DNA of 64,000 nucleotides from Hypomyces perniciosus. Lineage: Eukaryota; Ascomycota; Sordariomycetes; Hypocreales; Hypocreaceae. The notes under the pieces are model-generated. The model saw only the letters and a program-made list of their open reading frames with translations. It searched no databases and had not been told where the DNA came from. Shown here piece by piece: positions 1-36,598 of this stretch. Where the stretch lies: contig SPDT01000001.1 in the NCBI GenBank assembly GCA_008477525.1, positions 1,240,001-1,304,000 on the forward strand, read 5' to 3'. Numbering within the stretch: position 1 is the first letter of the stretch; every line of letters starts with the position of its first letter. A program made the position numbers and the translations under genes.

Positions 1-290
1 GTGTAGCCAGCCACCTTATGGCTATGAATACCGAACACAATGACTCCCCATGTCACTGAAAGGGTATTATGGGTATCCATTACAACGAGAAAATGGCCGA
101 GACTCTATTTCGTTATCGAATGGCAGCAAGTATATACATAAATTGAGATGGGTTTTGTGGCAACGTTCTAAATGATGGGCAAAGATAATGATTTACGTTG
201 CGGCTTTTATGGTTATGTGTTTGCATTGGCTTTTTAGTCCCCTTGTCTGTTCTAGTTAGCTTCGACACGAATCTCGAGCAGTCTGCTGTC
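1..290 (-). pseudogene. Distal fragment of the kinase-like domain, cut off by the hAT insertion
   Basis: Read on the minus strand from 290 downward, this flank begins with the codons DSRLLEIRVEAN and then meets a stop. On the other side of the 34-kb block the same frame reads HLVP immediately before the duplicated 8 bases, so deleting the block and one duplication gives a continuous HLVPDSRLLEIRVEAN. This matches, from memory, the region after GMRDEAPVA in a fungal P-loop kinase-like domain. Below about 255 no convincing coding remains, so the end of the gene has decayed or was deleted. The assignment of the first dozen codons is firm; that of the rest of the interval is weak. Confidence 0.6.
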
Positions 291-311
291 CAGGGCTGCA
301 TCCCGATCAAA

Positions 312-882
312 CAAAGCAAATCTGGACCCTACATTTAACTATTTGATCGAATTTCAATGCTACATTTAACTGTTTAACCAGATTTAATTTGATTTGATAC
401 ATTTAATTAGGTGATACTATTCCTAATTCCTTAGTGCCTTTATCCCTTAATTTCCTTAATATTAATACTAATTTAATCGCTCTGCTTCTCCCTTTTAAGA
501 ATAAAATTCCTTTTAAGTGTAATTACACTTTTTTGCAGCTAATTCTTTAAGTATATTACCTTTTTAAATATTAATAGCTTTATAGAAAGTCGCTAAAAGG
601 TTAATATTAACTTAATAAAACTAAAAGCTTTTTTATAGTTAACAGTTATAATAAGAATTGCCAATATATTAAAGGTAAATTTATTAAAGGTTAGAAATAT
701 ATATTAATATAATATCTATTACTATATTAAGTTATTAACTTTTAAAAGTAAATTAAAGTAATAATATTTCTTAAGTTTAAAGCTATTATTAAATAGTTTT
801 ACTATTTTACAATTAAACTATTATTAATAGTAACTCTTTTCTTTATTTTTCTTTAATATTAAAAAGGAGTTTTTTAATACTA
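312..882. other. Left arm of the hAT element, no readable gene
   Basis: This stretch lies between the left inverted repeat and the duplication of element A. Two degenerate copies of a roughly 30-bp unit starting CTACATTTAACT lie at about 331 and 360, followed by TTTGATTTGATAC. Beyond 400 the sequence is dominated by TA, AA and TT steps, and all frames are broken by stops. No coding feature can be supported. Confidence 0.6.
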
Positions 883-1189
883 GATTTTGTAACGGGTGTA
901 GCCTAACTGGAAAGCATACAGTTAGGGCACCTCTGTATTGTCTATCTATAGCTAAAGGAAGGAAGCTCTATACTAGCTATATATGCGTTATATAGTTGTG
1001 CGTATAGGGTTGTGGCTGAGGTGGTTTCCTAATTAGGTAAGCGGTCTAGTATTAGTTGTATTTCTGGATTCGGCGTAGTCGTGATTCCGGGAGACATAGC
1101 CTAGCCTGTAACATTACCCCCCCTTCTTACAGTGGCTCTCTCCTTAGGCGCCGTTACTTCGCTGGCGCATAGCTGTTAAGTGGCCTATC

Positions 1190-1400
1190 GTTAGATTCGA
1201 TTGGGCTATATTTAGATATATAGTTATCGAGAGCTGCTGTATCTTTAAATACGTGTATCGGTTCCCAGGTTGGCTGTATATATCCTTTCCACTGTATTAA
1301 TGCTTCGCGGAAAGAGCCGCGACCTCGCCGCTTAATCCTCGCGCAGAGGACCTCTTTAACTTCCTATTCATCCTTACTATCCACTTATATTAGTAGTAGT
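1190..1400 (-). pseudogene. Chromodomain-like C-terminus of the element A polyprotein
   Basis: On the minus strand this segment reads through a basic stretch into ALIQWKGYIQPTWEPIHVF and then AALDNYI. This matches the chromodomain pattern of chromovirus integrases (WKGY, then TWEP, then an acidic or helical tail). In such elements the domain is thought to steer integration toward marked chromatin. The segment is noticeably less AT-rich than the rest of element A and has no internal stop over about 50 codons. It sits close to the polypurine tract and 3' LTR, as expected for the C-terminal end of pol. Confidence 0.75.
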
Positions 1401-2844
1401 TAAGGGTTATTTAAAATCTGGCCTGGAAAGGGGTTATCGGCCACTCTTTTTAGCAGGTTAACGTAAAATCGCGGGTATATACCAGTTAATACGCCTAGTT
1501 CTACTATATAAAGGCTAATAACCTTTATTACTATATATTTATAATATAGGGCATTAAGCTTTTTAGAAGGCTAGGGAGTATTATAATTGCCGAGGTATAG
1601 CCAGACTTTATCTCTTACTTTATATCTTTTAAAGGGGCCTTACTGCTAGTTTGCGGAATCTTTATAGCATTATTATATAGTAGCAAGTACTGCTTAGGTA
1701 AAGGCAGTTACTTTTTCTAGTCTTTTAACTATTTCTTTTACAGCCTTCTCCTTTAAGTCCTTTAATCTAATAGCTTTATTTTCTTTTATATATAGCTAAA
1801 GGGGTTCTATATAGTAGCTATACTTAAGGAAAAAGGGGCTTATTTAGATAGCTGTATATTCGCGGTTATTTAAAGTTAATTACATTACTGGGAAAAGGTC
1901 TCTTTAATTGCTCTAAAAGTAGTTTATATATACTTTAAAGTATACTTAAATCTTTTAGTTGCTCCTCTCTAGTCTGCTATTAGTTTATAGGTAATATACT
2001 GTACTTAGGCGTTGCTGGGTTCCTGCTAGTTTATAGAAAGCTTTTTAAAAGCGGCTAGTCTAATTAAATCCTTAGTCACTAACTATAGACCAGGGTATCC
2101 TATAAAACTAATAGTAGCATTAAAGGAACCTCTTTATATATACTTTTACCTCTATACTCTTTATTACCTTAAAAGTAATATTTTTAATAAGCTGGTCAAT
2201 AATAACTTAAAGGTATTATACCTATATCAGTCTTATAGGTAATAGGTTAACTATAAAGTCTATAGCTAGGTTACTGCGGATATATTAGGGAATAGGTAAT
2301 AGTTTAAAGAGTCCTTGCTTATAGCTTCTCTATGCTTTTCCTCTTTTATATATACTGCAGTTATAGAGGAATTATTAGACTATACTGTTAATTCTTAGCT
2401 AAAAGAACCTACAGGAAATAATAGCTAGGGTTCTGTTATAACCTAGGTAGCCCGAGACTGCAGCATTATATTCTGCTTATATAATGCAAGTATACAGCAT
2501 TTCGCCTTCTTCTTCAGTTATAGCCAATACTTAAATACAGTCTTAGAACATTAATCTCTGTTCCTTATTAATTATATATTCTAATATCTATACTTTAAGT
2601 TAAAGGTCTGCGGGGAAAGAGCGCTCTTCCTTTTTAACTGCAGTATATACCTATTAATATACTAGGTCCTTTTAAATTATTAAGTTCTATAGGTCCTATA
2701 GTTCCTCGTTTCCGTTAAATATATATATTAAAGGGAGATTAATATCGCTATCCTTAAATCTCTATATCGCTAATGCAGCTAGGATAAATTATATATAATG
2801 GCTTAGTTTACGCTTATCGCCTTTATTAAGTGGAAGGTCTTATT

Positions 2845-4110
2845 CCCTGCAGCTTAACGCGTTAAAAGCGGCTGCCTTACTGCCTGGCCTATATTAGATT
2901 ATAAAATCGAACTAGGAAAGGAACTCTGCCCAGCGCGTCTATCGTTTAGAGAGTTTCCTGCGCGTTATAAAGAACTGTAAGTTCTTATAGTTTAAAATAA
3001 CTGTAAAGGGGTCGCAGCTATATAGCTCTGCTCTCCACTTTTCTAAACAGTAAATTACTGCCAGTATTTCTTTATTATAGATAAAATAGTTATATTTAAT
3101 AGGGCTTAGCTTTTATAAATAGTAAGCTGTAGTATAATATTCTCCTTTTTTATTCTTTTATAAAAGGACTCCTTTTAAAGTATATCCTAAACAGTCTACT
3201 TTAATAAAGGTGCATTTTATAAGATCTTAAGCTTATAGTATAAGGGCTTTAATAAAGAGGTATTTAAACTTTTAAAAGGCTGCTTCTTCTATACCTTTCT
3301 ACTAGAAAGAGGTCTTTTTTTTAGTTAGCCTTATAAGCAGGTAGGCTATCTAAGAGAACCCAGGGATAAATATCTAATAGTAATTAGTAAAGCTAAGGAA
3401 GCTTTAGACTTTTATTACTATTATAGGCGCCTGCCACTCGCTAATAGCTCGCTGCTTTTCAGGGTTATAGGCAATTCCCTTACTAGTATATATAATAAAC
3501 CTAAAGTATTTAATCTCTTTTTATATAAATATACACTTCTTAGGATCTAGGTATAGCCTAGTATTAGCAAAGGCGCGTAAAACTTGCTAGACTTTCTTTA
3601 TATAGTCCTTTTATAACCTATTAATATAAATTAAGATATTATTAAAGTATATAGATATAAAGTTATTTAAAAAGGGGTATAGTATTTGGTTAATATACTA
3701 TTAAAACGCTGCTGGTATACTGGTAAATCTAAATAGAATTACCCGCTATTTATATAAGCTATAATATATATAAAATATAGTTTTATATTCTTTTCTTTTT
3801 GCAACTTTAATTTTATAAAACGCACCTATTATATCTAGCTTTATAAACTACTTTACTTTTATTAAACTATTAAAGGTTTTAGAAAAAAGGGGGAGGGGGT
3901 AGCGATTTTGCTGCATTATTGCATTTAAGGTATAGTAGTCTATATAAAAGCGAATTCCTCTTTTAAGTTTCTGAATAAAGAGGATAAAGGCTATAGCAGC
4001 TAAACTGCTAGCTTAAATAAATCCTTTATTAAGCAAGTTGAGGAGGGTCTTTTATAATACTAATAGTTCCTTATATAATATACTGTAAAGGGGGCTTTAA
4101 AGGAGTTCTA
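2845..4110 (-). pseudogene. Reverse transcriptase and RNase H remnant of element A
   Basis: Minus-strand translation gives, in order, RT motifs (GIRFYIDYYTLNAI near 3,960, then FIKLDIIGAFYKI, then YFNNILIYIN near 3,640) and RNase H motifs (NKEILAVIYCLEKWRAEL near 3,070, then RQTRWAEFLSQFDF and YRPGSKA near 2,890). These are the Ty3/Gypsy RT and RNase H cores. The catalytic YxDD is read as YFNN and DHKN as NYKN, both G-to-A changes of Asp to Asn, and CAG and TGG codons appear as TAG. The enzyme cannot be functional. Confidence 0.85.
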
Positions 4111-6330
4111 GTTTTTTACTATATTTATTAGCTTTTAAGGGAATCTGTAAATTAACTTTAAGGCAGTATAGTGGAAGCTTAGTAGCTTTTTTTATAGAGA
4201 ATAGCGAATAAAACTTTTTATATAGTTTAAGGGGGATATATTCCTAGGGATTTATAGGTTTTTTAAGCTAGAGTACTTTTTTAATATCGGATAAGCTAAT
4301 AGCTTAAAGGAAATATACTTCCTTTTTACTGTTCCTTTTAGTGCGGCAGTATTCTGCTTGCAATATTAAGGCTAGTATAAGCCAGGCTCTTTATATAGCT
4401 TTAATATTCCCAGGCTTTTCTTTATCTGCAAATTATAGCTATAGGCTAGCTTTTCTATAGCTAACTTCCTTTTTAGCTGTATTATATATTACCTAGTTAG
4501 CCTTAACCTAAAGTTTACTAAGGATTAGGTTATAATCTAGTTAATCTACTATATAGGTATATTAACATTTAATATAGCTATATAGATCCAGGTAAATAAT
4601 AGCGATATAGCTGGTTTTTACTTTCTTATAGATCTCAGTAAATATCCTAATCTTCCTTTTAGTAATCTTAATCTGCAAAAAGTATAACTTCTAGGCAAAA
4701 GAAGAGTTTATAATAGTATAAAGGTTATAGCCAGTATCGAATAGTGCTATAATAGGTATATTCTCTATTCTGGCTTATAATATTGCTAATTCGCTAGTTA
4801 TTTACTCTTTAAACTCCTTTTATCCCTTTAGTTCTTTCTTTATAGGCTTTAACGCCTAACTTTGCATTAAAGCTAATCTTTTAACTTATCGCTAAAGTTA
4901 TCGTCTTCCTTGCCATTAATATACTAGTTATTATTATCAGACTTATAGTCGGCAATCTAGACCTAATACACCTAGGCTCTATAGCCTTTCTTGCAAAACT
5001 AGGCAATATATCCCTCCTTCCTGTAATAGTAATATATAGCCTCCCAGGCAGTATTTGCCTCGTTTACTAAAAAGCTGTATCAGCACTAGTTCTTTATATA
5101 GTTTACGCCCTTTATCTAGGTATTGCCCTTTATCTAGGTATTGCCCTTTTTATTAACTGCTTGTATATAGTCCTTTAAAGTGCAATATAGTTAAAGCTTA
5201 TTATATTTTTTCTGCTAGGAGTGGCCTATTAAGGCAGCTCCTGCGTTTTATTAGTCTAGATTTAATTGTTTAATGCAGTTAGCGATATCTTAGACTTTAG
5301 TAAGTTATTTGCTATAGGTAAGCAGCAGGTTTACTATTGCTAAGCGGAATTGTAGTTCTAGAGATAATACTCCTTTAAGGAAGATAATCTTGGCTTGGTT
5401 AGCTTAATTATTGCCGCCTGCCTTAGAGAGCTTTTATTTAAAATAGGGAAGGAAAGATAAAAGCAAAGTTTTATCTCTTTACTTAAAAGTGCGCAGCTTT
5501 TATACAGCTTAATTCTAAAGTCTTTAATCTTTATAGGTATAGTCTAGGTATTATATAAATTCTATTAGGTTATAGTTCCTATTAGTTCCTTTTAATATAT
5601 AGAAAATAGCGACTACCTGCTTAAATATAGCATTTAAACAGGAGTTAATAAAGTATTACTATTCTTTATTGCTGTTATAAAACTCTTTATTAAATTTAAG
5701 CTTCTTATATATATTTTGCGCCTATACAGTATACTCCCTTTACTTTCCTAAGAATTTAAATAGGTTAAAGAGTAGCTTCTTTTTAACTTTGAAAGCTTAT
5801 ATAAACTCTATTATAGAGGTTAATATAGGCTTTATAGTTGCGGCCTGCGCGGGTTTTTACTTAGGTTATAGAAGGAATAATATCTTATCTTCCTAGCTAT
5901 CTAGCCTTTAAGTCGCTAGTGCTATAAAGTCTAGCTTTCTTATTAATGCAGCTATTTATTCCTATAAAGGTAGAACAGCTTACTCGATCCGCGACTATAC
6001 ATTATCGCCCTTAGAGGCTTGGTCTCCGAAATTCGCTATTTTCCTTTTATAGTAAGAGTTCCGTTACTTACTGGCTAGGTAGTAGCTAAGCTATAGATAT
6101 ATAACAGGTATAGCTTAACTGGAAAGCACACAGTTAGGGCACCTCTGTATTATCTATCTATAGCTAAAGGAAGGAAGCTCTATATTAGCTATATATGTGT
6201 TATATAGTTGTGTGTATAGGGTTATGGCTGAGGTGGTTTCCTAATTAGGTAAGCGGTCTAGTATTGGTTGTATTTCCGGATTCAGCGTAGTTGTGATTCC
6301 GGGAGACATAGCCTAGCCTGTAACAGATTT

Positions 6331-6522
6331 TAATTAAATATACTTTTATTATCCTAGTTATAATATTAATACTTTTAGTATATAATAAGATTATTTTTAA
6401 TATAATAAAGCTATATAAACTAGTCCTTGCTATTCCAATAATTCTTTAATTATTTAATATTTAAGCTTAAATATAAAATAACTGTTACTATAAATAAAGG
6501 CGATTTTTTAAGCTAAGTATAA
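6331..6522. other. Middle piece of the hAT element between A and B
   Basis: These 192 bases separate the duplication of element A from that of element B. They belong to the interrupted hAT by subtraction. No motif was recognised; the composition is strongly AT-rich. Confidence 0.5.
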
Positions 6523-9500
6523 TAAATTGTCACGGCACTGACCGTGACGCGATATTGATGCCTTGTTATATAAGATCTGGTTATATAACCAGGCCCTAAC
6601 GCATTCTTAGCTATAGCTTTCTATGAAGCCTCAGGGCTTTCTTACTCTCTACAGCACAATAATAATATTTGCCTTAACCTACCTTTCCATACTATAATAG
6701 TTTATACTATCCTTTAACTCGGCTGCGCTATCGCAAGGCATATACCTAACCAATTATAAATCCCCCCTTATTCCTGAACCTATAATAATGCCTTTATAGC
6801 TTAGCCTTTACCTTTTAAACCTTATATTTATAGGAAATTAATTATAAGCGAAATAAATATAAATACCTTAAACCTTACCCTGCAGCCTAATTTAACTTAA
6901 TAGACTATAATTTTAACTATAAAGCTAATACCTTTCCTTTTTTTTTTAAAAACCTTATAAAAATCTAGTATTAATAGCGACTATATACACTTAATAAATA
7001 TAATTATTAAAAATAATAACCTTTATTATTAATTCTATCTCTTTAATTAAATAATAAAAAGGGGCTTAATTTAATAAAAAGAATAAAAGTAAACCTTTAA
7101 ATAGAAAATCGTAAAGTAGGCAATTAAAAACTAAAACCTTAAAGTACAAATTAAAGTTTAGGTTAAAGCTTTAAATATAGCTTTACTATTAAACTTTAAA
7201 AATAATAATCTATTTAGCTACTATTAAATTAAAAACTTTAAGTAATTTAATAATAAATAGAAAAATATTATTAAATATTAGTAAAAATATATTAATTAAT
7301 ATTTCTAAATTAATATCACCTTTATAGGCAATTAATTAATTTTGTTAATTAAATTTAAAAACATTTTATATATCATAAGTCTTTTAAAGGGAGATATATA
7401 TTAATTATAATAAAAAAACTTTAATATTATTATTAAAGGTCTTAATAACTCCACTTAATAGTATTAAAAGACTAATATAGTATTTCTTTTTAATTTTAAT
7501 AAATAATATAAAATATTTAACCTATCCTAAAAAATATTATAGTCTTTTAATAACCTATATATATTAAATAAGCCTTTTTAAAACTTTATAGTAAAGTTAT
7601 TTATATTAAGTAGTAAATGCAGTAAAACTATTAAATAAATAAGAAAGGCTTTAAAGATAAAGGTCTTTTAAAAGTTTGCTAATACTATAAAAATTTAAAT
7701 AATTAAGCTAAATAAATTTAATTTTATTAAATAGTATTAACTCTACTAAACTATTTATAATAAACTTTAAAAGGGCATTTACTATAATGCCCTTTATACT
7801 ATTTAAATAAATTAATATTAATAAAGCTATTAATAGTAATAGTATTAATATTAATAGTAATATTATTAATACTAATAAAATAACTAAACTACTACTTTAA
7901 TATTAGCTAGCAATTTAATATAGTTAAATACTATATATACTTTACTACTTTGCCTTTAAATCTGTCGCAAAGAATATATTATTAAAAGACTTTACTTTTA
8001 CTATAAAAAAGCAGGCTATAGCTTTAAGAAATATAATTAAAAAAAGTAATTTAATATATATTAAAAGAATCTATATTAAATATAAAACTAAAATCGCTAA
8101 ATCCAGCTATATTAGCTATACTTTAATTTAATAATACGTTAAAGCTAATAATAAAATAGCCTAGTAAAATATGATAATTAAACTTTCATAGTGCGTTAAT
8201 ATTACCTGTAATATTTAAATAACCTATGAATCTAGGCCTTAAATAATATACTCTCTTTAAATATCGATAAAAATAATAATAATAGTATTACTTTATTAAT
8301 TTTTAATCTACTTTAATTTAACTAGCTTTACCTATTAAGAATCTAGATTTAACTTATAAATTAAGGAAAAGATTAACTTTTATTAAAAGTTATAAATAAA
8401 GGTTAACTATAAATAAAACTATTATTTTAAATAAATCTACTATTATCTTTTTAATTAAAAACCCTTTAAATTTATATTAATAGATAATAAATCCCTTTTA
8501 ATATAAACTATATTATTCTTTATATATAATATCTATATTAAAAAAAACCTTTAATAGACAGCAGTTATATACTTTAAGCTTTTATTAGTTATACTTTTAT
8601 TAAATAATTTAATATTATTATTTAATAACTGCTATTTATTAAAAACCTTTTATTTATTAATAAAAGTATAGTTAATAAAATTTTAAACTTCTTTATTATA
8701 TAAACTATAATTAACTTTTATAAAAAACTTTACCTTTTCTTTATTATAAATATCTTTAATAATATACCTATAATCTTTAGCCTTTTATAGCTAAAAAATT
8801 ATAACTTTAATATTAACTAAGAGGAGTTAACTATTACTTTTAAATCTTATTACTATTATAATTATGATCTTTTAAAAAGTATAGCTAGCCTTATATAGGT
8901 TTTAATAGTAATCGAGAAAAAAGATAACTTTACTAAAGCTAATATAAAAAATATATATTACTAGTAACTAATAGTTAAAGATACCCTAAATAAAATAAAG
9001 CCTAAGTTAATTAAATAAAGAACTATACTATACCAGCAACTATTAATTAAAAATACTTTAAAAGAAATAAACTATAACTTAATTAAAAAGGGAGCCTTTA
9101 AATTATATATTCTATAAACTTTAATACTAAATTAAAATTATTATATAACCTGTAGGTATAGTAGAACTAATAATAAAGAAATATAAGTATAAAGAATCTT
9201 AAATTAAATATATATAAAGCTATAGCCAGCCTTTATAATTTACAGTTAATAATAAAAAGGAAAACCTTTATTAAAGCTATTACTATTACCTTTTAATATA
9301 TTATTTTTATAAAATTAAATTAAACTTGAAAATTAAAAAGTATATTTAAATATAGCAGATATATAAATAATAGTGGCTATAAACTTTATTACGCTTTATT
9401 AATAACTATATATCTATATAATAAACATAATTTAAAAAGAGATTAACTAAACTATTAAAATTAAAGAATTAATACCTATTATTTTATTAAAGCTTTTAAA

Positions 9501-10879
9501 TAAATTCTTCTAATAAATATTTATAGGATAAAGAGACTATATTAAAGTAAAAATAATATTATTTAAAGAAATATATAATTTTATTAATAAATATTACTCT
9601 TTAATATAACTAATAAAGATTATAGCTGTTAATATTAAAAAGTTTATAATAGGGAAACCTAAATTTAATAAACTAGATATTTTAAAAAAACTATTATTTT
9701 AATTATGAAATTTATATAATATTTTTTTATTAAAGATAATAAATAAGCTTTTTTTATAATAAACTTAAAACTATAAAATTAAAATACTGCTAAGAAAAGA
9801 CCTATTATATTAAAAAAATAGGCTATTTTTATTCAATAAACTATAAGTAATAAAAAATAATTAAGTAATAATTTAATGAAAGGATTTATCTGTAAATTAT
9901 AAATATAATGCACTACTCCCCTTTTTTTAACTGCAAAATTAAAAGGCAGCGTTTATATTTATTAAAACTATTAAAAGTTAAATAATATTAATATTCAGAA
10001 TTAATACCTATTACTATTAATTTGAAAAGCCTTTAATACTTTAAGCTGTATAAAAGTATATATAAAACTCGATATTATTACTATATTTAATAACTTTTAT
10101 ATTATTAAAAGGGATATATAGAAAATAGTATTTATTATAAAGTTTAGCCTTTTTAAAATATTAATTATATCTTTTAGCCTTTATAATATACCTATTATAT
10201 TTTAATATTATATTAATTATATTTTTTATAACCTTTTTAATTATATTTATATAGTATACTTTAATAATATCTTTATATATTTATTAAATTAAAAAAAGTA
10301 TTAAGAATATATATATAAAATTATAGCTTACCTTTAAAACACTAGCCTTTAAATTAATATTATTAAATATAAATTTAAAATAATAAAGATAAAATACTTT
10401 CATTTAATTATTACTTAACAGGAATTAAAAATAAATCTTAAAAAAGTTAAAGCTATATTAAATTAATAATTACTTAAAAGAATAAAAGACCTATAAAAAT
10501 TCTTTAACTTTATAAATTTCTATTATTATTTTATTTAAAAATATTTTAAAATAACTGCACTATTAAATATACTTTTAAGTTAACTTTAATCCTAGCCTTT
10601 TTTAACTTTAATAAACAAATAGTCTTTAAAGCTAATACCTTTAATTAAGTATTGAATAATATCCTATTATAGTATAATAAAAAAGGTATTCTTTACTTTA
10701 TTATTTTTTTTTTATAAAGTATAATATTTAAAAATATAACTATAAAATCTATAATAAAAAACTTTTAATTATTATTAAAGTAATAAAGATATAGCGCTTA
10801 AAATTATAAAGTTTATAAAAGTTTAATATTATTATAGACTATAAAAACCTTAAATACTTTACTTTAACTAAAGCCTTAT

Positions 10880-11720
10880 ATTAATAATAAGTCTAATAGT
10901 TTAAATTCCTCTTTAACTTTAATTTTTATATTACTTATTAACCTAGCTTTAAAGCTATAAAGCTTAATGCCTTAAATAGAAAAGCTAAAAAAAAGCCTAA
11001 AAATTAAACCCCTTTAATAATTAAATTAAAAATAGGCAATATACTATTCTTTTATAAAGTTTTTTAACTTTAAAGTTTAAGTAATATTTTAAAGAAATCT
11101 TATTAAATATAAAACTATATATAAAGGCTACCCTTATAGCCATAATAATACCTATAAAGGATAAATTAATTAATAATTTAATTATAGTAGTATATAAATA
11201 AAATATTATAGTAAAAGAAATAGTAACTGCACTTTAAAACTTTATTACCTGCTAATAGCTAAAAATAACTTTGCAAAAAACCTTAAATTATAATAAATAA
11301 CTATTAAATAATAAATAATAAAATCTATTATTAAAAGTAACTTTTTATTCCCTTTAATAATAAACGTTATATATAAATTCTATTTAAAACCCACTTAAAT
11401 AGCCTAGTTAAATACTTAAATAGATTTAAAACCTTAAACCTTATTAATTAAATATATTAATAGCTATAAATCTTAAAAAATATTAAAGTATTTATATAAG
11501 CCTATAAACTATATATTAAAATAGAAGCTTTATAATCTTTACTATAAAGCTTCCTTTAACTATTATTAATCCTATTTTATATATAATTAAATATATCTAT
11601 TAATTATATTATACGACTGCCTAAATCTTACTGCTATAATACTATTTATAAGTATTTATTAGTAATAGTCTATTACTTTATAAAAATATATTATTTTATA
11701 TTTATTATTTTACTATTAAT
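10880..11720 (+). pseudogene. RNase H and integrase remnants of element B
   Basis: Near 10,890 the plus strand reads a block matching the Gypsy pattern RW-FLFNFNFYITY-PSFKAIK-ALNRKA, with Arg and Trp codons turned to stops. This is the end of RNase H. From about 11,580 it reads INYIIRLPKSYCYNTIY followed by LLVIVYYFIK, the degenerate form of the integrase core DFI-GLP...LVVVDRFTK. Order and strand agree with element B. The stops and Asp losses make the product non-functional. Confidence 0.7.
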
Positions 11721-23508: not shown

Positions 23509-23699
23509 TATATTAGCACTTTTAGGATCTTTGGCTATCTAAAGCTATTCCTAGGCTTCTACTGTAAATACTGTTACAGTTATAGTAGTACTACTACTAT
23601 TTTTACTATTTTTAGTAATTAATATATACTATATAGTATATTCCCTATTTTAATAGGATATAGGTCTAACAGCAGTATAAGTCGACCTATTAGGGCTTT

Positions 23700-25230: not shown

Positions 25231-25800
25231 GATGTAAACCTTATGAGTGGTTTAAGGTATTACTAAGCTGGAGGATATATATAGTATAATACTCTTTTTA
25301 TAAAAACTATATAGCTAATAAGGCTATTAAATCCCTTAAAATATAGTTTTTTCCTTATAATTAAAGGATACACTACACTATACAGCTATATAAATAGCTA
25401 TAGAGCTTATAGCTCTATATAGGTTTAAATTCCTACTATTAGTAAGGAAAAGGCTTAGGAATATATTGCTATTCCGGAAGTAGTAGCTTCAATAAATAAA
25501 CAACCAACTAGATCTAGCCCTAGGCTTATAAAGAGGAATTATCTTAAGGAAAAGGATCCCTTTAAACTCCCTGAAACCCTAGGCTAAGTAAAGGAAAAGA
25601 AGCCTTGTATACCCTTATTGCCTGAGGAAATAGGGGGGAATAAGCCTATAAAGGATACCCTTATAGAGGAAAGGCCCTATATGCCTAGGGAATCCTCTAT
25701 TACTAAAGATCTAGAAGTTGTTAAGCTATCTGAACCAGAGGGAGATACTATTATTAATAGTAATTCTAGCTATAAACTGCTAAAGCTAGCCCTTTTATAG

Positions 25801-26700
25801 CATAAAAGACTAGGTTATATTAGCTTAAATCTGCTAAAAAAGACAGCTAAAATAACTACTAGAATTCCTAACTTTAATTCTATTAAAGAGACTAAATTCC
25901 ACTACCTAGCGTATAATAAAGGAAAAGCTATTAGGAGGCTTTATTTAAAGCCAATTCCTAATCCACTAGCCTCTCTAGATTATCTAGAAGCTAATACTTT
26001 CTCTATAAAGCCAGTGCCTTATAATAAGGCCCCTATTAGTCTTCTAATTATCAATAGAAAATTAAGATATAGGTGGCTATTCCTTTTAAGAGATCATAGT
26101 GGACCCACCCTTCTAGCTACTATATAAGGCTTTATAAATAGCCTGAAAATGCAGTATAACCGGTATCTTAAAGAATTTTATAATAATAGCGGAAAGGAAA
26201 TTAATCAAGAACTTTAGACCTAGTTCTTTTCCTTAGGAATTATATATTCCTATAGCAGCCTTTACATTTACAAGCAGAATGGTTTAATAGAACGCTTTAT
26301 TAGAGTTTTATTAGATAGGCTATAGGCTATTATTATAGCGGCTAACCTGCTATTATATCTCTAGAATTTTATAATTACTGCAGTTCTTAAATTAATTAAC
26401 TATATAGCTATTACTAATAGGGACTCCACCCTTTATTAAGAATTATATAAAGACCTAGACCTTAATAAGGATCATAAGCCTAATCTACGAAGATATAGGA
26501 TTATTGGCTTTTATTGTAAGGTATTTGTTCTGTAAGAATAAAGGGCTAAAGGCTATAAATTAGCCCCTAAAACTGAAACTGGGAGACTGCTAGCAGTTTT
26601 AGGTAGTAATACCTATCTTATCTATATTCCAACTAGATATATAGTCTTTAAATCGTTAACTATAAAGCTGTATAAAGATAAGATTCCTGAGCTTTAAATC
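25801..26700 (+). pseudogene. Integrase remnant of Copia D
   Basis: The segment opens with HKRLGYISLNLLKK, the degenerate pre-integrase HHCC motif (normally W-H-RLGH). It continues with FHYLAYNKGK and a core region ending in QNGLIERFIRVLLDRL, which matches the Copia integrase pattern N-G-ER-...-R. Several Trp and Gln codons are stops. The region from 25,618 upstream is open for 60 codons but belongs to the same polyprotein. Confidence 0.8.
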
Positions 26701-27072
26701 CTAGAGCCTACTATAGGTTAGGATAATAAGGAATTAAAGGGAGAAATAGAGCTAGATTCTATAAATTAAATAATTCCTAGCTTTTAGGATATTAATCCCT
26801 TACTCCCTGACCCTATTCCAGAGGGAGTACCTACTACTATTCCCCCTATTCCTAGTCTTATTCCTATACCAGTTATATAAGACTCTGCAGTTATAGAGGA
26901 TCCTATAGATATAGATATATCCCACTTTCTCTATAATAGCGTTAGAAAGCTAGCCTTTCTAGCTGCTGCAGCTTAAGACCCTCAAACGCTTAAGCAAGTA
27001 CTTTATAGTCCTAATAAAACTAAGTGGCTAGCAGTGATTTATAGCGAATTTGACCAGCTAGTCGAACAATAC

Positions 27073-27334
27073 TGTCAGAGACCCTCTTTGGGGCAGACGG
27101 ATCGGGCGAGGGGCTGCGACCCTAGGGAAGAGTAGAGGAGGTTGAAGAGCAGTCACTTGGAGGAGAGATAGATGCTAACAAGCAGGTAACAAGCCAGAAA
27201 CTAGTAGTTAGGTGTAGCAGCAGTAGTTTACTAGTCTCTGAAGTTCTATATCTTCGGGGACCACAGTTGCTCTTATATATGCATTCCGGCCCATGTGATA
27301 TCATGAGAGCTCCGGAGCTTCCGGTCTCCTGACA
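27073..27334. mobile_element. 262-bp solo-LTR-like insert inside Copia D
   Basis: The insert starts TGTCAGAGACC and ends GGTCTCCTGACA, near-perfect inverted ends, with the 5-bp duplication AATAC at 27,068-27,072 and 27,335-27,339. Removing it with one duplication restores the Copia frame as LVEQYTFTFIKRN. TG...CA ends, a 5-bp duplication and an internal TTATATAT box fit a solo LTR of another family. Its base composition is ordinary, unlike everything around it, so it arrived after the surrounding RIP. A small TIR element is the alternative reading. Confidence 0.85.
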
Positions 27335-27339
27335 AATAC

Positions 27340-28865
27340 ACCTTTACTTTTATTAAGCGTAATAGTCTTCCTAAAGGCAGGAATCCTATTACTAGTCGAT
27401 TAGTCTTAAAGACTAAGAAAGACCAGAATAATAGAATAGTTAAATTTAAAGCTAGGCTAATTGCTAGGGGCTTCCAATAACTAGAAGGAATAGATTTCAA
27501 CTAAACGTTTGCCTCAACAGCTGTTCTTTCTACCTGGTGGCTTTTATTAGCCCTAGCTACTATCTATAACTAGGAAATCGAACAAATCGACTTTATTGGT
27601 GCATTCCTTAACGGGATACTTAAGGAAACTATTTTCTTTAACTTCCCTGAAGGATTTAAAGACTATGCTAGTTAAGCTTCCCTTAAGATTAAGTCTATTC
27701 TTAGAAAGCTAGGTTATAACCCTGATATAGATTAGGTTATTCAGCTACAGAAAGCTCTTTACAGCCTAAAACAGTCCCCTAGAGAATGGTAACAGGCTCT
27801 ATAAGCCTTAGGAAATAAACTAGGATATAATCCTTTAATTTCTAACTCTGCTATTCTCTATAATCCAAACAACAGTATTTTTATTGTCACTTATATGGAT
27901 AACTGTCTTCTTATTGGACCAGATAAAGAAGCTATAGCCTAGCTAAAGCTAGCTTTTAATAAAGTCTATACTATAGAAAATAAAGGCGCTGCCTCTTTCT
28001 TTTTAGGGGTTTAGATAATTAGGGATAGAAAAAGAGGCCTTCTTTAGCTTTCCCAGAAACAGTATATTACTAAAGCTATAGAGTTTTTTAACCTTTAAAA
28101 CTCTAAGCCTATCCAATTACCCCTGCAGCCCTTTATTATAGCTAATAAGACTATAATTAAATTAAATAAAGCTAATACTAAGCTTTTCTAAGCTATTATT
28201 AGTACTATTATCTATTTAATAATTTATACTTAAGTAGATACTAGCTTTCTAGTTTAGTGGCTAGCTAGATAATTCTAAGGCCTATATAAAGAGCACTTAA
28301 ACGCAGCCTGTAACCTATTACAGTATCTGAATAGTACCTAGGATCTAGCTATTCAATATACTAGAAAATCTAGTCCTATACCTATTAGTTATTGCGATAG
28401 TGATTTTGCTGGGGATAAAGAATTAAGCAAATCGACTTATAGCTATATTATTATAGTTACTAATGGGCCAATTAGCTGGAAATCGAAAAGGGGCTTAACT
28501 ATCTGTCTTTCTACGCTAGAAGCAGAGTTCATAGCTCTTATAGAAGCTACCAGGGAGATTCAGTGGCTTATTGGCCTATATAAAGAGGTAGATCGACCAA
28601 TCAGACAGCCAATCTCTTTACTTAACGATAATAAAGGTGCTATTTCTACCTTAAATAACCCTACCCTTTATAATCAAATAAAACATACTCTATTGCGGTT
28701 TAATTATATTAGGGAATAGGTTAAAAATAGCGTTATTATAGTCAGCTATCTGGAAACCAGTAAAATAGTTGCTGATAGGCTTACTAAGCCTCTTCCAGGT
28801 CCGAAATTAAGGAACTTTATAAGTCTCCTTAATCTCAAGCTTTTACCTAAGGTCTATACCTAAAG
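27340..28865 (+). pseudogene. Reverse transcriptase and RNase H remnant of Copia D
   Basis: After the 262-bp insert the frame reads IVKFKARLIARGFQ and EIEQIDFIGAFLNG, then ALYSLKQSPREW and YMDNCLLIGP (normally YVDD). RNase H follows with YCDSDFAGDKELSKSTYSY near 28,395 and ISWKSKRGLTICLSTLEAEF near 28,480, finishing before KLLPKVYT and a stop at about 28,863. These are diagnostic Ty1/Copia motifs. In-frame TAG codons replace Gln and Trp throughout. Confidence 0.92.
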
Positions 28866-31800
28866 TTTTTACCCTTTTCTTTTTTATAGTTACTAGCTAT
28901 TTTTAGTTATTAGCTATCCTGGTTATTTTTGTTATTTTCAGCTATATTTAGCTATCCTTTTTATTGTTATATCCTAGTTACTTTCCTATATCTAAATCCT
29001 ATATTTACTTTAAAGTTATATAGGATAGTATCTATTCTAGAGGGAGTGTTAAAAAGGAGGGCTAAAATGCAAGGATTTTTGTGTAATTGGGTAACCTTCC
29101 TATTCTGGCTAGACCTAGAATTAGGCCTGATGCTAGGACCGAGTTCTGGAGGAACTTCGGTGTAAGTTAGGAAATTTCTGTTATCTTCAACGATAATAAT
29201 TAAGCTAGGACCAGCTACCCCGCCTACCCTAGACTTAATATAATGGCCATAATGGCTATTGTGAAAAATCTGACCAAAATGGTTTCCTGTTTGTATGGCC
29301 GTGAGTCGATTTGACTGATTTTATATATAAATGAATTTTGCGGAAAATAGGAATGCGGCCACGAACCCAATTCTGCTACCGCACACCTATTGTTAGGTTG
29401 GAGGACTATTGTAGAAGACAAAGCTATTGTTTATACAATTCACTTCTACACCAGCCGTATATACACTAGATATTCTATAGCTTCTAGCTATTGGATTGTT
29501 TACAATTTAATTGTTTATCTATTGTTAACCCAACTAGACTCTCAGTCGTTTCCTTATTGCTGCGTTGGGTGCACCTTCCTAGAAGCTGCACTTAAATGAG
29601 GTTTAGTATAACCTTGTTATTTTAACAAGTGATATTTACTATAAAAATCTTATATTAATACTTAACTTTAAAGTAGGCAAATAGTACTTTTATATTAAAG
29701 ATATTTATAATTTCTTATATAACCTTTCCTGTAAAAAATAAATATTAAACTTTACCTTAAAAGATATACTTTATATAATAATAAAAGGACTAGCGACTAT
29801 TAAAGCGGCCTAAGCTAAAATTATAATACTTATAGATGCATTTAAGGGTACCTTTACTTTTAATTAAATAATACTTTAAACTTTTAGTATTCTTAATAGA
29901 CTATAAAACTTCCAGCACTTTACTAAAAGATAATAAATCTTTATAGGGTTTATTTATTTCCTTAACTATTAATATATTTATATTTTTAATAAATATAAAT
30001 ACCTTTACTACTTTAACTTTTACAGGCATAACTGTAAACGCCAAGCGCAATAATTCCTTAATTTATAGGCCTATATAGTTAAAAAAGCTAGATTTCTTTA
30101 TTTATTTAGCTTTTATATAATCCTATATATAAAATAACCTAAAGCTAATAAATATAGCTATTTAAGCCTATTCTAGATTTAATAAATGCTTTATAGACTT
30201 ATTAATATTAAACTAAATCGATTAGCGGAATATTTAAGTAGAATTCCTATCTCCTTTAACTTTAAAAAGTATAAAACAATTAACTTAAAGGGAATTAAAG
30301 TTTTACTTTAAAATTAATATTAATACCTATAGTTTAAAAGTTTAGCTAAAAACTGTATAAATGTAATTTAAGTTTTGTATTAATTTATAACAGTAAATAA
30401 ATTTACTATTATAAATTTTAAAATATATAAAAACAATATCCTGCCCTTTTTAATTAAATATCATTTAATTAAATTAAATTAAAGCTAATAAGCTCTTTTA
30501 AAAATAACTTATAAAAGGAATATAATAAAGATTAGCAGTTAATGCCTAGCTGACTTTAAAGTACTAGTAAATGATCCTATAAAAGAGAATAGGTTAATTT
30601 ATTATAAAGAGAGGTTTTTTTAATAGCTAGCTGTTTTCTTACCTTTAAATATCTAAAAAAGATTATAATAGCAGCAGTTAATATTTAATATATAATTTCC
30701 TATACTAACAATACCTATACCCTTAGCTATATAGTTTAATTAATTGCAGTAAAAGAAAAGAAAAGTATTCTCCTTTGCTTTATAAATAGTACTAGTAATA
30801 AAGAAATAAAATAATACTGCTAGCCTGGCAATATAAACAGTAGCCTTTATAAAAGTAATAGTAGGATTAGCGACTAAAAGCAAATTAATATACTTTTTAG
30901 TAATACTATAACCTATACGACCCCCGTTAACTATATTAGCTATTATTAATAATATTAAAACTTTAAATGTAAAGTTAGCCTCTTTTAAAGAAAACAATAG
31001 CTCTTTTAATGCATTAAAGGATAATTAAAATATAAAAGATAAAAGAGTTTTAAAAGTTACTGCTAAATTTAACCGGCAAGCAATTAAAGATAATAAAAAG
31101 GATCTTTTAAAATTAGGCGAAAAAGGGTAAACTATAATAATAGCCTTTACAGCAATATTAAAAAAAACTATACTTGAATATTCTTAAATTTAATAAATTA
31201 TAGCCTTAAATATATACTGCAGTTTAACTTTATTTAAGTTAATAAATAAATTGGCTTAAAATAATATCTAAAAGTAAATTTATATACTTATATAAATAAC
31301 TAGATAGCTGATATAAAAAGAGTAGATAATAGCTTAGAATACCTAATAAGAAAAGGAATTAATAAAAAGGGATTATTTAATTATAATAATTCTAATAAAA
31401 GGAGAATAACTTAATATAGATTAAATAAAGAGGAATTAATAATATAGGCAGCAGTAATTCTACTTTTATTTTGTCTTTCTTTTTAATATATTTTTTCTAC
31501 TATTTTCCTATATTATTTATACTTTCTTTAAATATTATTATATTAGTATTAAAAGGATTAATAAGATAGGCATTCTATTAAGATTCGCTTCTTGTATTTG
31601 CAAATACTTATAGGGAGGGTTTTATTAGGGGTAATTAATATATTTAATATACCTGTATTTTTTTTATTAAACTTACTTAAAAAAAGTTAACTGCTTATTT
31701 AAGCAGTTACTAAATTAAAGGAATATAAGAGTATAAAGATATATAAATAGACCTAGTTTAATATATAATAACCTTCTTCCTCTTTTAATATATAACCTTA

Positions 31801-32322
31801 CCTGTAAATATATAGCTGCTAAGGCATATAAAGGTAACCGTTAATTGCTTTTAGCTGCTGGTATTATAATTAAATAATCTGCAGTATCTTTTAGACCCTA
31901 TATTACTTAATTGCCGCTTTATAGTTTTATTAGTAGCGCGGTCCTTGCGCTCGATACCAGTCGTTATATATAGGTGTATATGTATTATGCGTGTGTTTTA
32001 GAGGGCTAATTCCCCCTCAACAAACTATATAATTTGCCTTATTCACCTTTATATTAAAAGTATTAAAATAAATTACTTAGAATTTTAATTTATATAAATA
32101 ATATAGCTATTTGCAGCTGAATAGCGCAATAAAGAAGGGGGGTATTGTTATAGTATTAACTATAATGCAATATTAACGCCCTATTATATAAGCTCCGGTT
32201 ATATAACCAGGCCTTAACGTGTTCCTAGCTATAGCTTTCTATAAAGCCTTAGGGCTTTCTTGCTCTCTATAGCATAACAACAATATTTACCTTAACCTGC
32301 CTTTCTATACCATAATATAAAT

Positions 32323-34335
32323 ATTCAGCTTTTACTATATAATTGTAATAAAGACTTAAAGGTATACCTTTCAGTGTTCTTGAAAAAATAAAGTTTACTT
32401 TATTTATAATATTTAACTTATTCTTAATATAATTGTTTTATATATAGGCAAAACGAATTTATATTGCATTTAATTAGGATATAAAGGATTAAAAGGGTTA
32501 ATAGAGGGTTATTGCAAAGGTACCTTATTATATATACCTTAATTAAGTCGAGTTTATAATTTATATCTAGGTTTAAGTCTATTAAATTTCTTTATTAATA
32601 GGTATAGTATATAATACTTTCTAGTCTTTAAAGGACTTAAAAAGAAATTTAATGCCTATTATAAGATTATAAAGCTTACTAATAAGACCCTGGCGTCTTT
32701 AATAATAAAGATTATTACTAAAGCAATTAGCGATAATATAAAGTTATAATTCCTATTTAAAAGCTTTATAATCCTTTTTAAATAAAAAAGCCTAGCTAAT
32801 AAAATTTAAGATATACCTATAATATTATATCTGCCTCTTTAATGCATTATCTTTAGTTATTTATAGATTTAAACTGTAAAAGAAATACTATATATATATT
32901 ATTATTATTTAATATATTATTAAAGATAACTATACTAATTTAATTAGTAAAATTCTAGTTATCTATAATTTACTAAAAAGTATATATAAGATTCTCCCTT
33001 ATATAACTTTTAAGCTACTGTTAAAGAGTAAAAAGATATTATTATTAATAATTATATAGGTTAAAAAAATAGCTAGTAACTGCTATTATTGTATTTTAAT
33101 TTAGGGAAGTCTATAAATTAAAATTAAAATAAATTTATAATAATAAAGCATAAAGCTTTACTTTAAGAAATCCCTTTTTAAAGGAGAATACTATATTAAA
33201 GGAATTGCATTAACTTATTTTACTTTAAGAGATTTATTATATAAGATTAAGGTTTATTTAATATATTATAAATTAAAGATATTTATTTTTAAGCGCTTTA
33301 AATAGTAAATTAGTATTAATAATATATATAATATAAAGTTTATAAACTTTATATATATATAACTATAAAATTAATATAGTATTTTATCGCTATCGCTTAA
33401 TAAGGGGTAAAGTAATATTATTAAAATTAAAACTTATATTTAAATTGGTAATATTATATTTTAGTATTTTATACTGCTTTTTAAAGTAGTCGGTTATAGA
33501 GGTTATTACTAATACTTTAAATAACTTTAAAATAGCCCTTTTTTTATTACTGCAGCAGTAAATCTAAAAGTATTTACCTATAAAAATTAATATAGAAAAG
33601 GATAGGAATCTAGAATAATATATTTATAATATTACTAGTAAGGATTTCCTACATAAATTGCCTTTCCTTTTTAATTTAGTTTATATAGCTTTATAATCGT
33701 TTTTATAATATTAATTTATTAAAGATAAAGCAGCGACTGTATTAAGTTACTATTAAAATATTTTAATTATTTTATAGCTATTAAAGTAAAAAATAAAAAA
33801 GATAACTTTAAAGGCATTTTAAATTATAATAAAATACTATAATAAAGAGATAAATTAAAAATTAAAAGATTGATTATATTAAAGGTATATATATAAATAA
33901 AGTTATATTATTAATATATTTAAATGGCGATAATATATATAATATTGCAATATATATAAAGCAGTATTACTAGGCTAGATTTATATTAAAGGCTAGCTGG
34001 GCTATATTGTATATAAATTATAATAAAGGGTATAGTTAATAATTAATAAAAAAAGCTTATATAATAGTATAATCTCTAAAAATAACTATTATAAAAAGGT
34101 TATAGGTTTAATTTCTACTATAGGCTATATATATCTAGGTAAGCCCTTTTAAAGCTTATATAGATGTATTGTTTTTTTTTTATATATATCTAGGCCCAGA
34201 ATAACAATATTCTAAAGGAAAACTACCCTGAACTATTTAATCAAATAGGTTAAATATTAGGCCTTATACATTTGACTGTTTGATCATTGGGAATAGCTTT
34301 ATTTGTTTGTTTGTTTGATAGAATATTTGATTTGA
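32323..34335. other. Right arm of the hAT element, no readable gene
   Basis: Two kilobases lie between the TAAAT duplication of element B and the right inverted repeat. By subtraction they hold most of the hAT, presumably its transposase, but every frame is broken and I could not find a conserved hAT motif. Near the end, a TACATTTGACTGTTTGATC motif (about 34,267) and TTTG and TTTGA repeats (34,301-34,340) precede the terminal repeat. Confidence 0.55.
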
Positions 34336-34356
34336 TTTGATCGGGATGCAGCCCTG

Positions 34357-36598
34357 CTGCTGTCTGGCACCAAATGTCACAAGCCTGCGACTGGCGCCTC
34401 GTCTCTCATCCCAGTGATTAGCAGCACATCCACATCTACGGCGCCGTACACCACACTCAGAACATTCTCCTCTGGCAGCCGAGGTCGTTGCCGCACCTGG
34501 CCCTGGAAAAATGTCGTCAACGCTGGCCGGTGTTGTTCCTTGTAGGCACGGTCCCAAAGCAGGCGGTTCAGGTCGGCGCCGTAAGCTCCGCTGCTCAAGG
34601 GCAACAAGTCCCCGGCGACGTTGTAAACCCACCGCACGGCAGCTCGAGCTACTTCGGTTTCATCTTGGTCGCGGGGCCAGACATCAGTTACGACGCAGGC
34701 AAAGTCCCAGTCTCGACAGCCGAATGCAGTGGCATGGGCCGCCACATCGCCGACCGCTCCGCCCCCTTGCAGCAGGTGGAGATAGCAGAGTGGCGAGGGA
34801 CGATTCTCAACGGCCGCCACCAAGATGTCGGCGATGTTCACTGCTCCAATGCGCTTTAAGAATAAACATCGCTTGAACGAGGAGGTCTTGCCACCGCCGT
34901 GACCGCCGTGCATCTCGGACATGTACATCTCGGTCTCGAACACACCGACGCCGTCCACGGCCTTGAAATTGTCTTCCGGCCCCAAAATTACGCTAGCGGC
35001 CTGGTCGTGGAAGATTCGATCATGGTTACGCCAAGATGCAGCTGGTCTGTGTCCCAATACAGATACGCGTCCGCAGAACAGTTCCAGGGGAGGCCCCTGG
35101 CGACCAACTTATCAAAATCGCCGAGCCTGAGCTGCGCCTCGAGGTTGTCACTCAGCGGGATAACCCAGTTTCGAATCCAATAGGTCGGAGCCGCGACAGC
35201 CTTGAAAGTAACGCTGACCACGATACCAAAGTTGGTCCCGGCGCCTTTCATCGCCCATAACAGATCGGCTTCGTTTTTCGGGCGCACGGCACCGACGATA
35301 GCGTCGCACGCAAGCCTGTGCAGCCTAGCCACAGCCCTGCGCCTACGCTTAGGCAGGCCCCCAGGGGCACTGTCACGCCCGCCGCCATAATCTTGCAGAC
35401 GATATCCCCCGTCTTACAGCCAGCCTCGGCGACAACCAAGGAACCGGAGCCGGGACCGGGACCGGGACCGGATTTTCCTCCATCCTCCGCAGCTATGAGA
35501 ATATGTACTTTGTTAAAGGCGCCCATATCAACTGAGACGACGTTGGGCCAAACACAGTGTCCGCTGTGACCCCCGCCGACGATGGTTAGGCCGACCCTGT
35601 GCTTGAGAGCCCATCGAATGCACTGCTGGACGTGTCGGACCTCTGTCGGCCTGAGAATCGAGGCGGGACGGTGGAGGCGAGCCTCCCAGTTTTTAACCGT
35701 CTTGTCCCCCTTCACTGATGGCACCTGCGCCGTCAGCTCCGGCAACGTGGTTGCATGTTGGGTAAGGGCCGCCATGATGCTGGGCGAGCTGAATAAGAGA
35801 TAGTCTGGGCGGGCTTCCTCACGACGGCCCAAGGCGCGGCACACCTTACACCACTTAACTCGGATAGCCTCGTCTATATCCATCTCCTGCATGACAAACC
35901 CCGCAAAGAAAAGAGCAAAACAATCCAGCACATCATCATCATCTGCCACGCAAATGGCTGTAGTAGGGCAAGAAACCGTTCGATAGCATACTAAGCCGTC
36001 GAGTTGCAGGGTCCCGTCACGATAGAAAACCACCACTAATCCGCCTTCTGGCCCCTCAACAAGCATTTCCAGCGCTCGTTCAATGAACCCATGTTTGGGC
36101 TCCAGCCCGTATATACTGTGGCAGAATAAGATGACGTCGAATTTCTCGTCGCCATTGCTTGCTTGTATCGGTGCTGCCGTCTAGAACGAATAGGATTCGA
36201 TGGATATCGGGCGGGCTTTCCAGACAGGGCAGCGGGGACTCCGTCTCTGAGATAGGGCAAAGCCATTCTTCCAACCTGGTAGCAAACAGGTCGTTGGTCT
36301 CATATGTAGCGTATCTCGAAATCTTCCGTCTCAGATGGCCGGGCAGAAATCCAAGTATGCTCTTCGGGCCGGGTCCGATCTCTAGCACCGAGATATGCAT
36401 TCGCGAATTAAAAAGAGGGGCTAGCAGCTGAGATAGTTAAGGGATAATGAAGTCTCGGGACATCATCCATCCTGAGCCCTGCACCAAGATGTCGAAGCCA
36501 GCGCTGTACTGCGGTTCAGACAGCGGCTGCTTCGGGGACGACGTCGTTGCCGTGGCTTTCTGCCTAAGGGCGCACTTGAGGGAGTCAAGAGTGGCCAT
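34357..36598 (-). pseudogene. Broken multidomain gene: methyltransferase-like, FAD-linked oxidase, kinase-like
   Basis: The minus-strand start codon at 36,598 opens MATLDSLKCALRQK. A TAA at 36,439-36,437 (from CAA) follows, then ISVLEIGPGPKS, a SAM-binding glycine motif, near 36,390. A frameshift near 36,160 leads to DVILFCHSIYGLEPK and on to a PCMH-type FAD domain (TIVGGGHSGHCVWPNVVSVD, near 35,560). Further shifts lie near 35,325 and 34,995, and sequence is missing around GLW-ARLH and GAV-RPKNE. The oxidase part (FGIVVSVTFKA, then MHGGHGGGKTSSFKRC) then joins NRLLWDRAYKEQHRPALT of a kinase-like domain through a short GADL overlap, suggesting a deletion at microhomology. The gene ends at the hAT insertion. 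Related fungal proteins with this domain order are recalled from memory. The original reaction is unknown. Confidence 0.8.

What the first reader, a model, noticed from the sequence alone, without database searches (positions are those of the whole stretch)
283..34364. A 34-kb AT-rich block resolves into a five-level transposon nest anchored by a hAT element
Seen directly: 21-bp perfect terminal inverted repeats, an 8-bp duplication CTGCTGTC, and inside them matched LTR pairs or solo LTRs with their own 5-bp duplications (GATTT, TAAAT, AACTA, CTTTA, AGTGA, AATAC). Subtraction returns plausible sizes for most elements. The order of arrival is therefore fixed: hAT, then A and B, then C, then D and a solo LTR, then the 262-bp insert. 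This is a dated stratigraphy of mobile elements in one locus.
Basis: partly seen in the sequence, partly recalled or inferred. Interest (0 to 1): 0.75.

Follow-up and report, generated by a model that had tools for sequence, protein, structure and literature searches.

The report
Five-deep transposon nest in a fungus
A 34-kilobase stretch of a fungal chromosome is one small DNA transposon into which six later mobile elements landed inside one another, an ordinary kind of structure that can here be taken apart to the last base and shows that the usual repeat-divergence clock can give the wrong order.

Summary
The nest is real. A 2,828-bp hAT element (21-bp perfect TIRs, 8-bp TSD) holds A (Ty3/Gypsy, 5,438 bp) and B (Ty3/Gypsy, 6,612 bp). 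B holds C (12,102 bp, 402-bp LTRs). C holds a solo LTR of B's family and D (Ty1/Copia, 6,622 bp). D holds a 262-bp solo LTR of a young Gypsy family, E. Pieces plus single TSDs equal the 34,066-bp span exactly. Other genomic copies of each host element run through each insertion point, giving paralogous empty sites.

Two claims fail. Nesting orders 14 of 21 event pairs: A cannot be placed against B-E, nor the B solo LTR against D or E. And the layers are not dated: LTR differences are 141 transitions to 5 transversions, as RIP makes; at two of four other loci the necessarily younger guest is two to three times more diverged than its host.

Unexpected: the genome's RID-type methyltransferase gene, 46 kb beyond the window, has an in-frame stop, and compared copies of two long young families are un-RIPped. 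The nest may straddle the end of RIP.

The parts
283..290 (.). left 8-bp target-site duplication CTGCTGTC
34357..34364 (.). right 8-bp target-site duplication CTGCTGTC
291..887 (-). hAT piece 1, with left TIR 291-311; transposase inferred on the minus strand (dimerisation domain of copy L014 maps to about 539-697)
6331..6527 (-). hAT piece 2 (6326-6330 is A's right duplication; 6523-6527 also serves as B's left duplication)
32323..34356 (-). hAT piece 3, with right TIR 34336-34356
888..6325 (-). element A, Ty3/Gypsy, 5438 bp, LTRs 888-1113 and 6100-6325, duplication GATTT; RT at 3503-3973
6528..32317 (+). element B, Ty3/Gypsy, 6612 bp net, LTRs 6528-6699 and 32145-32317, duplication TAAAT; RT remnant 9918-10574
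12851..32023 (+). element C, 12,102 bp net, LTRs 12851-13252 and 31621-32023, duplication ACTAT (or AACTA); no polymerase found; orientation inferred from PPT- and PBS-like sequence
21248..21419 (-). solo LTR of B's family, 172 bp, duplication CTTTA, not RIPped (GC 0.535)
22739..29627 (+). element D, Ty1/Copia, 6622 bp net, LTRs 22739-23319 and 29047-29627, duplication AGTGA; RT at 27364-28128 (139.9 bits, with stops)
27073..27334 (-). solo LTR of Ty3/Gypsy family E, 262 bp, duplication AATAC (27068-27072, 27335-27339)

Best explanation
A hAT element of about 2.8 kb landed by cut-and-paste between genes. LTR retrotransposons then inserted one inside another by integrase, each leaving a 5-bp duplication, to a depth of five: hAT, then B, then C, then D, then E's solo LTR, with A as a separate branch in the hAT and a B-family solo LTR in C. 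Two insertions were cut down to solo LTRs by LTR-LTR recombination. RIP (repeat-directed C-to-T mutation) rotted the long repeats and made the block AT-rich and frameless. Shown: boundaries, duplications, family members, paralogous empty sites, partial order, transition bias. Inferred: RIP as the agent, solo-LTR formation, strand of C and of the hAT gene.
For: Exact sum of parts. Empty sites in other host copies: A 6 of 7, B 5 of 7, C 7 of 7, solo B 1 of 1, D 1 of 2, E 3 of 3 copies span the point; 13 C copies run through the solo-LTR site and 17 D copies through the E site. hAT copies of 2.9-3.3 kb with own 8-bp duplications; hAT dimerisation domain in one copy. RT or other domains for A, B, D, E. 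141 of 146 LTR changes are transitions; 60 of 65 transitions between the solo B LTR and B's two LTRs run C>T or G>A, taking the solo as reference. TpA/ApT is 1.29-1.65 in the five long elements against 0.71-0.81 in flanks.
Against: No other strain was available, so the hAT's own empty site is untested. The hAT domain is seen in one copy only, with stops; none is listed for the window copy. C shows no polymerase. Copies L018 (A site), L014 and L016 (B site) and L043 (D site) did not span, because of deletions, other insertions or the end of the fetched piece.
Confidence: 0.95

Rival explanations
1. LTR differences measure age, so this is a dated stratigraphy with B and C oldest and A and D later.
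For: In the window divergence agrees with nesting (B 32/172, C 64/402, D 36/581). Transversions too: 5 of 574 in B and C against 0 of 807 in A and D, Fisher p 0.012, tested after seeing the data.
Against: Guest C against host: C8 49/360 and 10/219 (p 3.5e-4), C10 57/382 and 15/222 (p 2.6e-3), both inverted; C14 23/360 and 37/578 (equal); C5 68/397 and 65/510 (p 0.07). Nearly all changes are transitions.
Confidence: 0.07
2. The whole 34 kb is one large composite element that moved as a unit between the hAT ends.
For: Intact TIRs and outer duplication.
Against: Ten other two-ended copies are 0.7-3.3 kb; each inner part has its own duplication and copies elsewhere without the hAT.
Confidence: 0.01
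3. C is a compound of two elements or has been mutated past recognition, rather than a single large non-autonomous LTR element.
For: 12.1 kb is long for an LTR element (recalled). All 67 open pieces scanned lack a transposon domain. Copies seen are AT-rich.
Against: Five copies measured are collinear and 12,107-12,155 bp. B is more AT-rich (GC 0.172 against 0.202), yet its RT is found in the window and in 7 of 7 other copies with the same Gypsy query.
Confidence: 0.45
4. The nest is an assembly artefact.
For: Repeats of this kind can be misjoined; reads were not available.
Against: Seven independent pairs of duplications and an exact sum of parts are not what misjoins give.
Confidence: 0.01

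Closest known systems
Nested TE clusters of Mycosphaerella graminicola (PMC4522978; section 8 read in full, other passages by find)
   Same: LTR elements nested in a base element, 5-bp duplications verified, GC drop, RIP-like mutation; 78 clusters of 7.5-63 kb; DNA transposons or unclassified elements as base in some.
   Different: Here the base is a hAT with its own 8-bp duplication, and depth is five; the deepest entry in that paper's Table 4 (LTR-based clusters only) is four levels.
hAT superfamily
   Same: TIRs, 8-bp duplication, dimerisation domain in one copy, short internally deleted copies.
   Different: No intact transposase seen in this family.
Ty3/Gypsy and Ty1/Copia retrotransposons
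   Same: A, B and E have Gypsy-type RT; D has Copia-type RT.
   Different: Nothing unusual seen.
LARD-type non-autonomous LTR elements (for example RLX_LARD_Thrym of Zymoseptoria tritici, named in a passage of PMC9970103)
   Same: C is LTR-flanked with no polymerase recognised.
   Different: No sequence comparison was made; C may simply be too mutated.
Loss of dim2 and un-RIPped bursts in Zymoseptoria tritici (PMC9970103, passages)
   Same: Damage to a RIP methyltransferase gene together with young un-RIPped families.
   Different: Here the damaged gene is the RID-type one; the DIM-2-sized frame is open.

Membership tests
hAT superfamily (base element) | terminal inverted repeats | tested here: met
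   21 bp perfect
hAT superfamily (base element) | 8-bp target-site duplication | tested here: met
   exact in the window; 8 of 10 other two-ended copies exact, 2 with one mismatch
hAT superfamily (base element) | hAT dimerisation domain PF05699 | tested here: met
   one copy, C8:3074455-3074613, 26.3 bits over a cut-off of 21.4, 3 stops inside; no match listed for the window copy
hAT superfamily (base element) | DDE catalytic residues | not tested
   no intact copy
Ty3/Gypsy (A) | LTRs, 5-bp duplication, RVT_1-type RT before integrase | tested here: met
   RT 44.1 bits at 3503-3973 minus; RT region 4033-2846 then integrase region 2497-1814 on the minus strand
Ty3/Gypsy (B) | RT of Gypsy type before integrase | tested here: inconclusive
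   RT matched by tblastn at 9918-10574, E 4e-19, and in 7 of 7 other copies; integrase not seen; RT absent from the profile list
Ty1/Copia (D) | RVT_2, with gag-pre-integrase upstream | tested here: met
   RVT_2 139.9 bits at 27364-28128; gag_pre-integrs weakly upstream in copy L041, E 0.0014, below its cut-off
Ty3/Gypsy with chromodomain (E) | RT, RNase H, integrase, chromodomain between LTRs matching the 262-bp insert | tested here: met
   L045, (rve slightly under its cut-off, Integrase_H2C2 above)
LTR retrotransposon (C) | direct LTRs and 5-bp duplication | tested here: met
   window and L043/L044
LTR retrotransposon (C) | reverse transcriptase | tested here: not met
   none with Gypsy and Copia queries (B and D as positive controls) or a LINE-like query without a positive control; none in 67 open pieces
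RIP-mutated repeats | transition bias in the C>T direction, TpA excess, CpA/TpG loss | tested here: met
RIP-mutated repeats | mutation during the sexual cycle, needing RID or DIM-2 | not testable with these tools
   gene candidates only

The most novel reading that the evidence does not exclude
The nest straddles the end of RIP in this lineage. hAT, A, B, C and D were mutated by RIP; the family of the innermost insert E, and two long high-copy families elsewhere (a 783-aa hAT, 37 open frames; a 1254-aa RVT_1 element, 18 open frames), show no RIP in the copies compared. The likely cause is the RID-type gene 46 kb to the right, split by one in-frame TAG in a column where 107 of the 108 homologues with a residue agree. 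The block would then be a before-and-after record of the loss of a genome defence, beside the lost gene.
Probability: 0.35. Interest if true: 0.6.

Novelty: new member of a known kind. Interest (0 to 1): 0.42.

Why it matters
Nests give an order of events that needs no clock. Here that order, set against LTR divergence, shows the clock inverted at two of four control loci, a warning for LTR dating in RIP-active fungi. If RIP has really stopped, this genome offers a direct comparison of transposon families before and after the loss of RIP.

Tried and rejected
Rejected: a 34-kb composite unit; a hidden extra element inside C (five copies collinear over 12.1 kb); age dating from LTRs; reading low GC as depth in time (at C8 and C10 the later-arriving C has GC-poorer LTRs than its host; at C14 they are about equal).

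Led nowhere: the identity of C. Pfam on 67 open pieces gave three unrelated matches at E 0.047-0.075; tblastn with Gypsy, Copia and LINE-like proteins found nothing in C, the last without a positive control. In one search I compared 148 of the 259 RT matches (typed in, chosen by contig) with 38 predicted C spans, leaving out a copy cut at 1,728 bp and secondary pieces; four spans held one, at different distances from the right end (7,993, 10,743, 10,978, 12,029 bp). Those profile searches do not list B's RT either, so they are weak evidence. In one search, RNase H and chromodomain matches among 74 pieces were not traced to a family; only 30 of the 74 were then scanned singly. A PDB search with a D piece found nothing. 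L021's duplication differs from the window's by one base, but its flanks are unrelated. The four C guests were picked because searches showed them beside A or D; they are not a random sample. One search set the right end of the solo B LTR 3 bp too far (hence two gaps); 21419 is the corrected end.
Full report
WHERE IT IS. The window is bases 1240001-1304000 of contig C3 of an unnamed 44.0-Mb genome in 23 contigs. A HET-domain gene beside the block has its best matches in Hypoxylon and Trichoderma, and the genome's RID-type gene is nearest to Trichoderma and Cladobotryum proteins. The host is a sordariomycete fungus, probably of Hypocreaceae (inference); the species is not identified.

THE BASE ELEMENT. 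The 21-bp TIRs and 8-bp duplication are exact and are the only such pair in the window. The left end matches 14 further places and the right end 23, some partial or of related families. Ten other copies with both ends were read: six of 2.9-3.3 kb, one of 2.2 kb, three of 0.7-0.8 kb, each with its own 8-bp duplication, exact in 8 of 10. Aligning the long copies to the window gives three hAT pieces, 2,828 bp net. The hAT dimerisation domain is recognised in one copy, L014, with stops. No ORF of 120 aa or more with an ATG, GTG or TTG start lies wholly within the block.

THE GUESTS. A (888-6325, minus strand) is Ty3/Gypsy. B (6528-32317 overall) is Ty3/Gypsy by its RT. C (12851-32023) sits in B about 120 bp before B's right LTR. 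D (22739-29627) sits in C and is Ty1/Copia. A 172-bp solo LTR of B's family sits in C. The 262-bp piece at 27073-27334 sits in D just upstream of the RT; it begins TGTCAG, ends CTGACA, and matches both LTRs of a 7.1-kb element with RT, RNase H, integrase and chromodomain. It is a solo LTR, not a MITE. The same sequence sits at another point of a D copy on C23. Family assignments rest.

ARITHMETIC AND EMPTY SITES. The net sizes plus six 5-bp duplications counted once give 34,066, exactly the span between the TIR ends. In one search the two 70-bp flanks of each insertion were joined and aligned to other copies of the host element. The match crosses the point in 6 of 7 (A), 5 of 7 (B), 7 of 7 (C), 1 of 1 (solo B), 1 of 2 (D) and 3 of 3 (E). 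The genome-wide tables agree: 13 C copies run through the solo-LTR site (15 of 689 candidates scored) and 17 D copies through the E site (18 of 787 scored).

WHAT THE NEST ORDERS. Seven events make 21 pairs. Nesting orders 14: hAT before six, B before four, C before three, D before one. Open are A against B, C, D, solo B and solo E, and solo B against D and solo E. In the window A's LTRs differ as little as D's (14 of 226, 36 of 581), which hints that A is late, but the next paragraph shows why that cannot be read as age.

THE CLOCK FAILS. The four LTR pairs differ by 141 transitions and 5 transversions. The B solo LTR escaped (GC 0.535); against it, 60 of 65 transitions in B's two LTRs run C>T or G>A (the two LTRs are not independent). 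This is the mark of RIP. Control: four loci where C is itself the guest, in D at C5 and C14 and in A at C8 and C10, with the host resuming on the far side after an overlap of 4-11 bp. There the guest must be younger. LTR differences, guest and host: C8 49/360 and 10/219; C10 57/382 and 15/222; C14 23/360 and 37/578; C5 68/397 and 65/510 (Fisher p 3.5e-4, 2.6e-3, 1.0 and 0.07). Two are inverted, one is equal, one is higher in the guest but not significant. The window itself (host C 64/402, guest D 36/581) agrees with nesting. A likely reason is that RIP strikes families unequally, C being long and numerous (inference). Transversions alone (5 of 574 in B and C, 0 of 807 in A and D; p 0.012, post hoc) favour B and C being older here, but are too few to date anything. 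The same four loci show that C was active after some A and D copies had landed, so the window's order is not an order of families.

ELEMENT C. Thirty-seven other places hold essentially its whole right part (40 of 381 candidates scored), and ten hold its whole 8.4-kb left part. Five copies measured from the two tables are 12,107-12,155 bp. No polymerase is seen, although B, more AT-rich, still shows one with the same query. C is either a large non-autonomous (LARD-like) family or a retrotransposon mutated past recognition; the evidence does not decide.

RIP, AND WHETHER IT STOPPED. Two cytosine methyltransferase genes were found: a 1344-aa open frame at C4, of DIM-2 size (size recalled), and one at C3:1350235-1351107. 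The second is RID-like: its best relatives are 62% identical over 99% of its length, one of the 120 listed (of 861 found) is named rid1, and it carries PPCQYFSPAHT, a motif form found in 117 of those 120. Its frame is open for 347 and 331 codons on either side of one TAG. Of the 120, 108 have a residue in that column and 107 of those share it; the query has one gap column within 15 columns on either side, so no intron-like break. At the same time young families lack RIP. Four of the 37 copies of a 783-aa hAT differ pairwise at 1-4 of 3,298-3,420 bases, and three of the 18 copies of a 1254-aa RVT_1 element at 0-1 of about 3,980. E's one copy read in full has an LTR pair differing at 1 of 262. 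Loss of RIP by damage to a methyltransferase gene, with bursts, is described for Zymoseptoria tritici dim2 (PMC9970103, passages). Against this reading: the stop may be an assembly error or private to one strain; a recent burst without sex would look the same; genomic repeats can be RIPped without RID, through DIM-2, in Neurospora (PMC11969663, abstract); not all of E is clean, since another likely E copy (C23) has two stops in its RT and two E-type LTRs are only 85-86% alike; and a 262-bp insert is by itself too short to tell, as short repeats escape RIP (recalled), which also explains the clean B solo LTR.

PRIOR ART. Nested, duplication-verified, RIP-affected clusters are known in fungi: 78 in Mycosphaerella graminicola, with others named there for Leptosphaeria maculans and Epichloe (PMC4522978, section 8 in full and passages). 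PMC9910759 and PMC5915480 were seen as passages, PMC12543289 as a search of its text that gave only reference-list lines. Searches were listings. The species is unknown to me, so I make no claim that this locus is not in print.

VERDICT. The structure is ordinary in kind and unusually complete, with two by-products worth following: the inverted clock and the broken RID-type gene.

Noticed in passing
G000:C3:1350235-1351107 (L064), 46 kb right of the window: RID-type cytosine methyltransferase gene split by one in-frame TAG in a column shared by 107 of 108 homologues with a residue there.
   Followed up: partly
whole genome; L046, L066, L067, L068: A hAT family with 37 open 783-aa frames among 88 PF05699 matches; four copies compared are 99.9% identical and un-RIPped. 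A second family shows 14 matches of identical score with a 135-aa frame.
   Followed up: partly
whole genome; L069, L070, L071: An RVT_1 element with 18 open 1254-aa frames; three copies compared differ at 0-1 of about 3,980 bases.
   Followed up: partly
42000-57000: A second AT-rich block: A-family LTR at 42406-42632, a repeat pair 43112-43298 and 52189-52375 (90%), and a Gypsy-like RT remnant at 47341-47847 minus.
   Followed up: no
59520-59656: A stretch about 70-74% alike to the hAT's end, perhaps a remnant of a related hAT family.
   Followed up: no
34377-36180: Open frames on the minus strand with FAD-binding and, oddly, phosphomevalonate-kinase matches; the first ends 12 bp from the hAT's right duplication, so the hAT may lie just beside a gene end.
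   Followed up: no
L020, L021, L023: Short copies (0.7-0.8 kb) of the hAT with intact ends and 8-bp duplications, MITE-like deletion derivatives.
   Followed up: no
40458-40838 and 41565-41890: Dispersed repeats shared with an insertion in hAT copy L014 and with the flank of copy L015.
   Followed up: no
L041 (C23:3053012-3053269): A second, independent insertion of the E solo LTR in a D copy, in the opposite orientation and 180 bp from the window's site.
   Followed up: no
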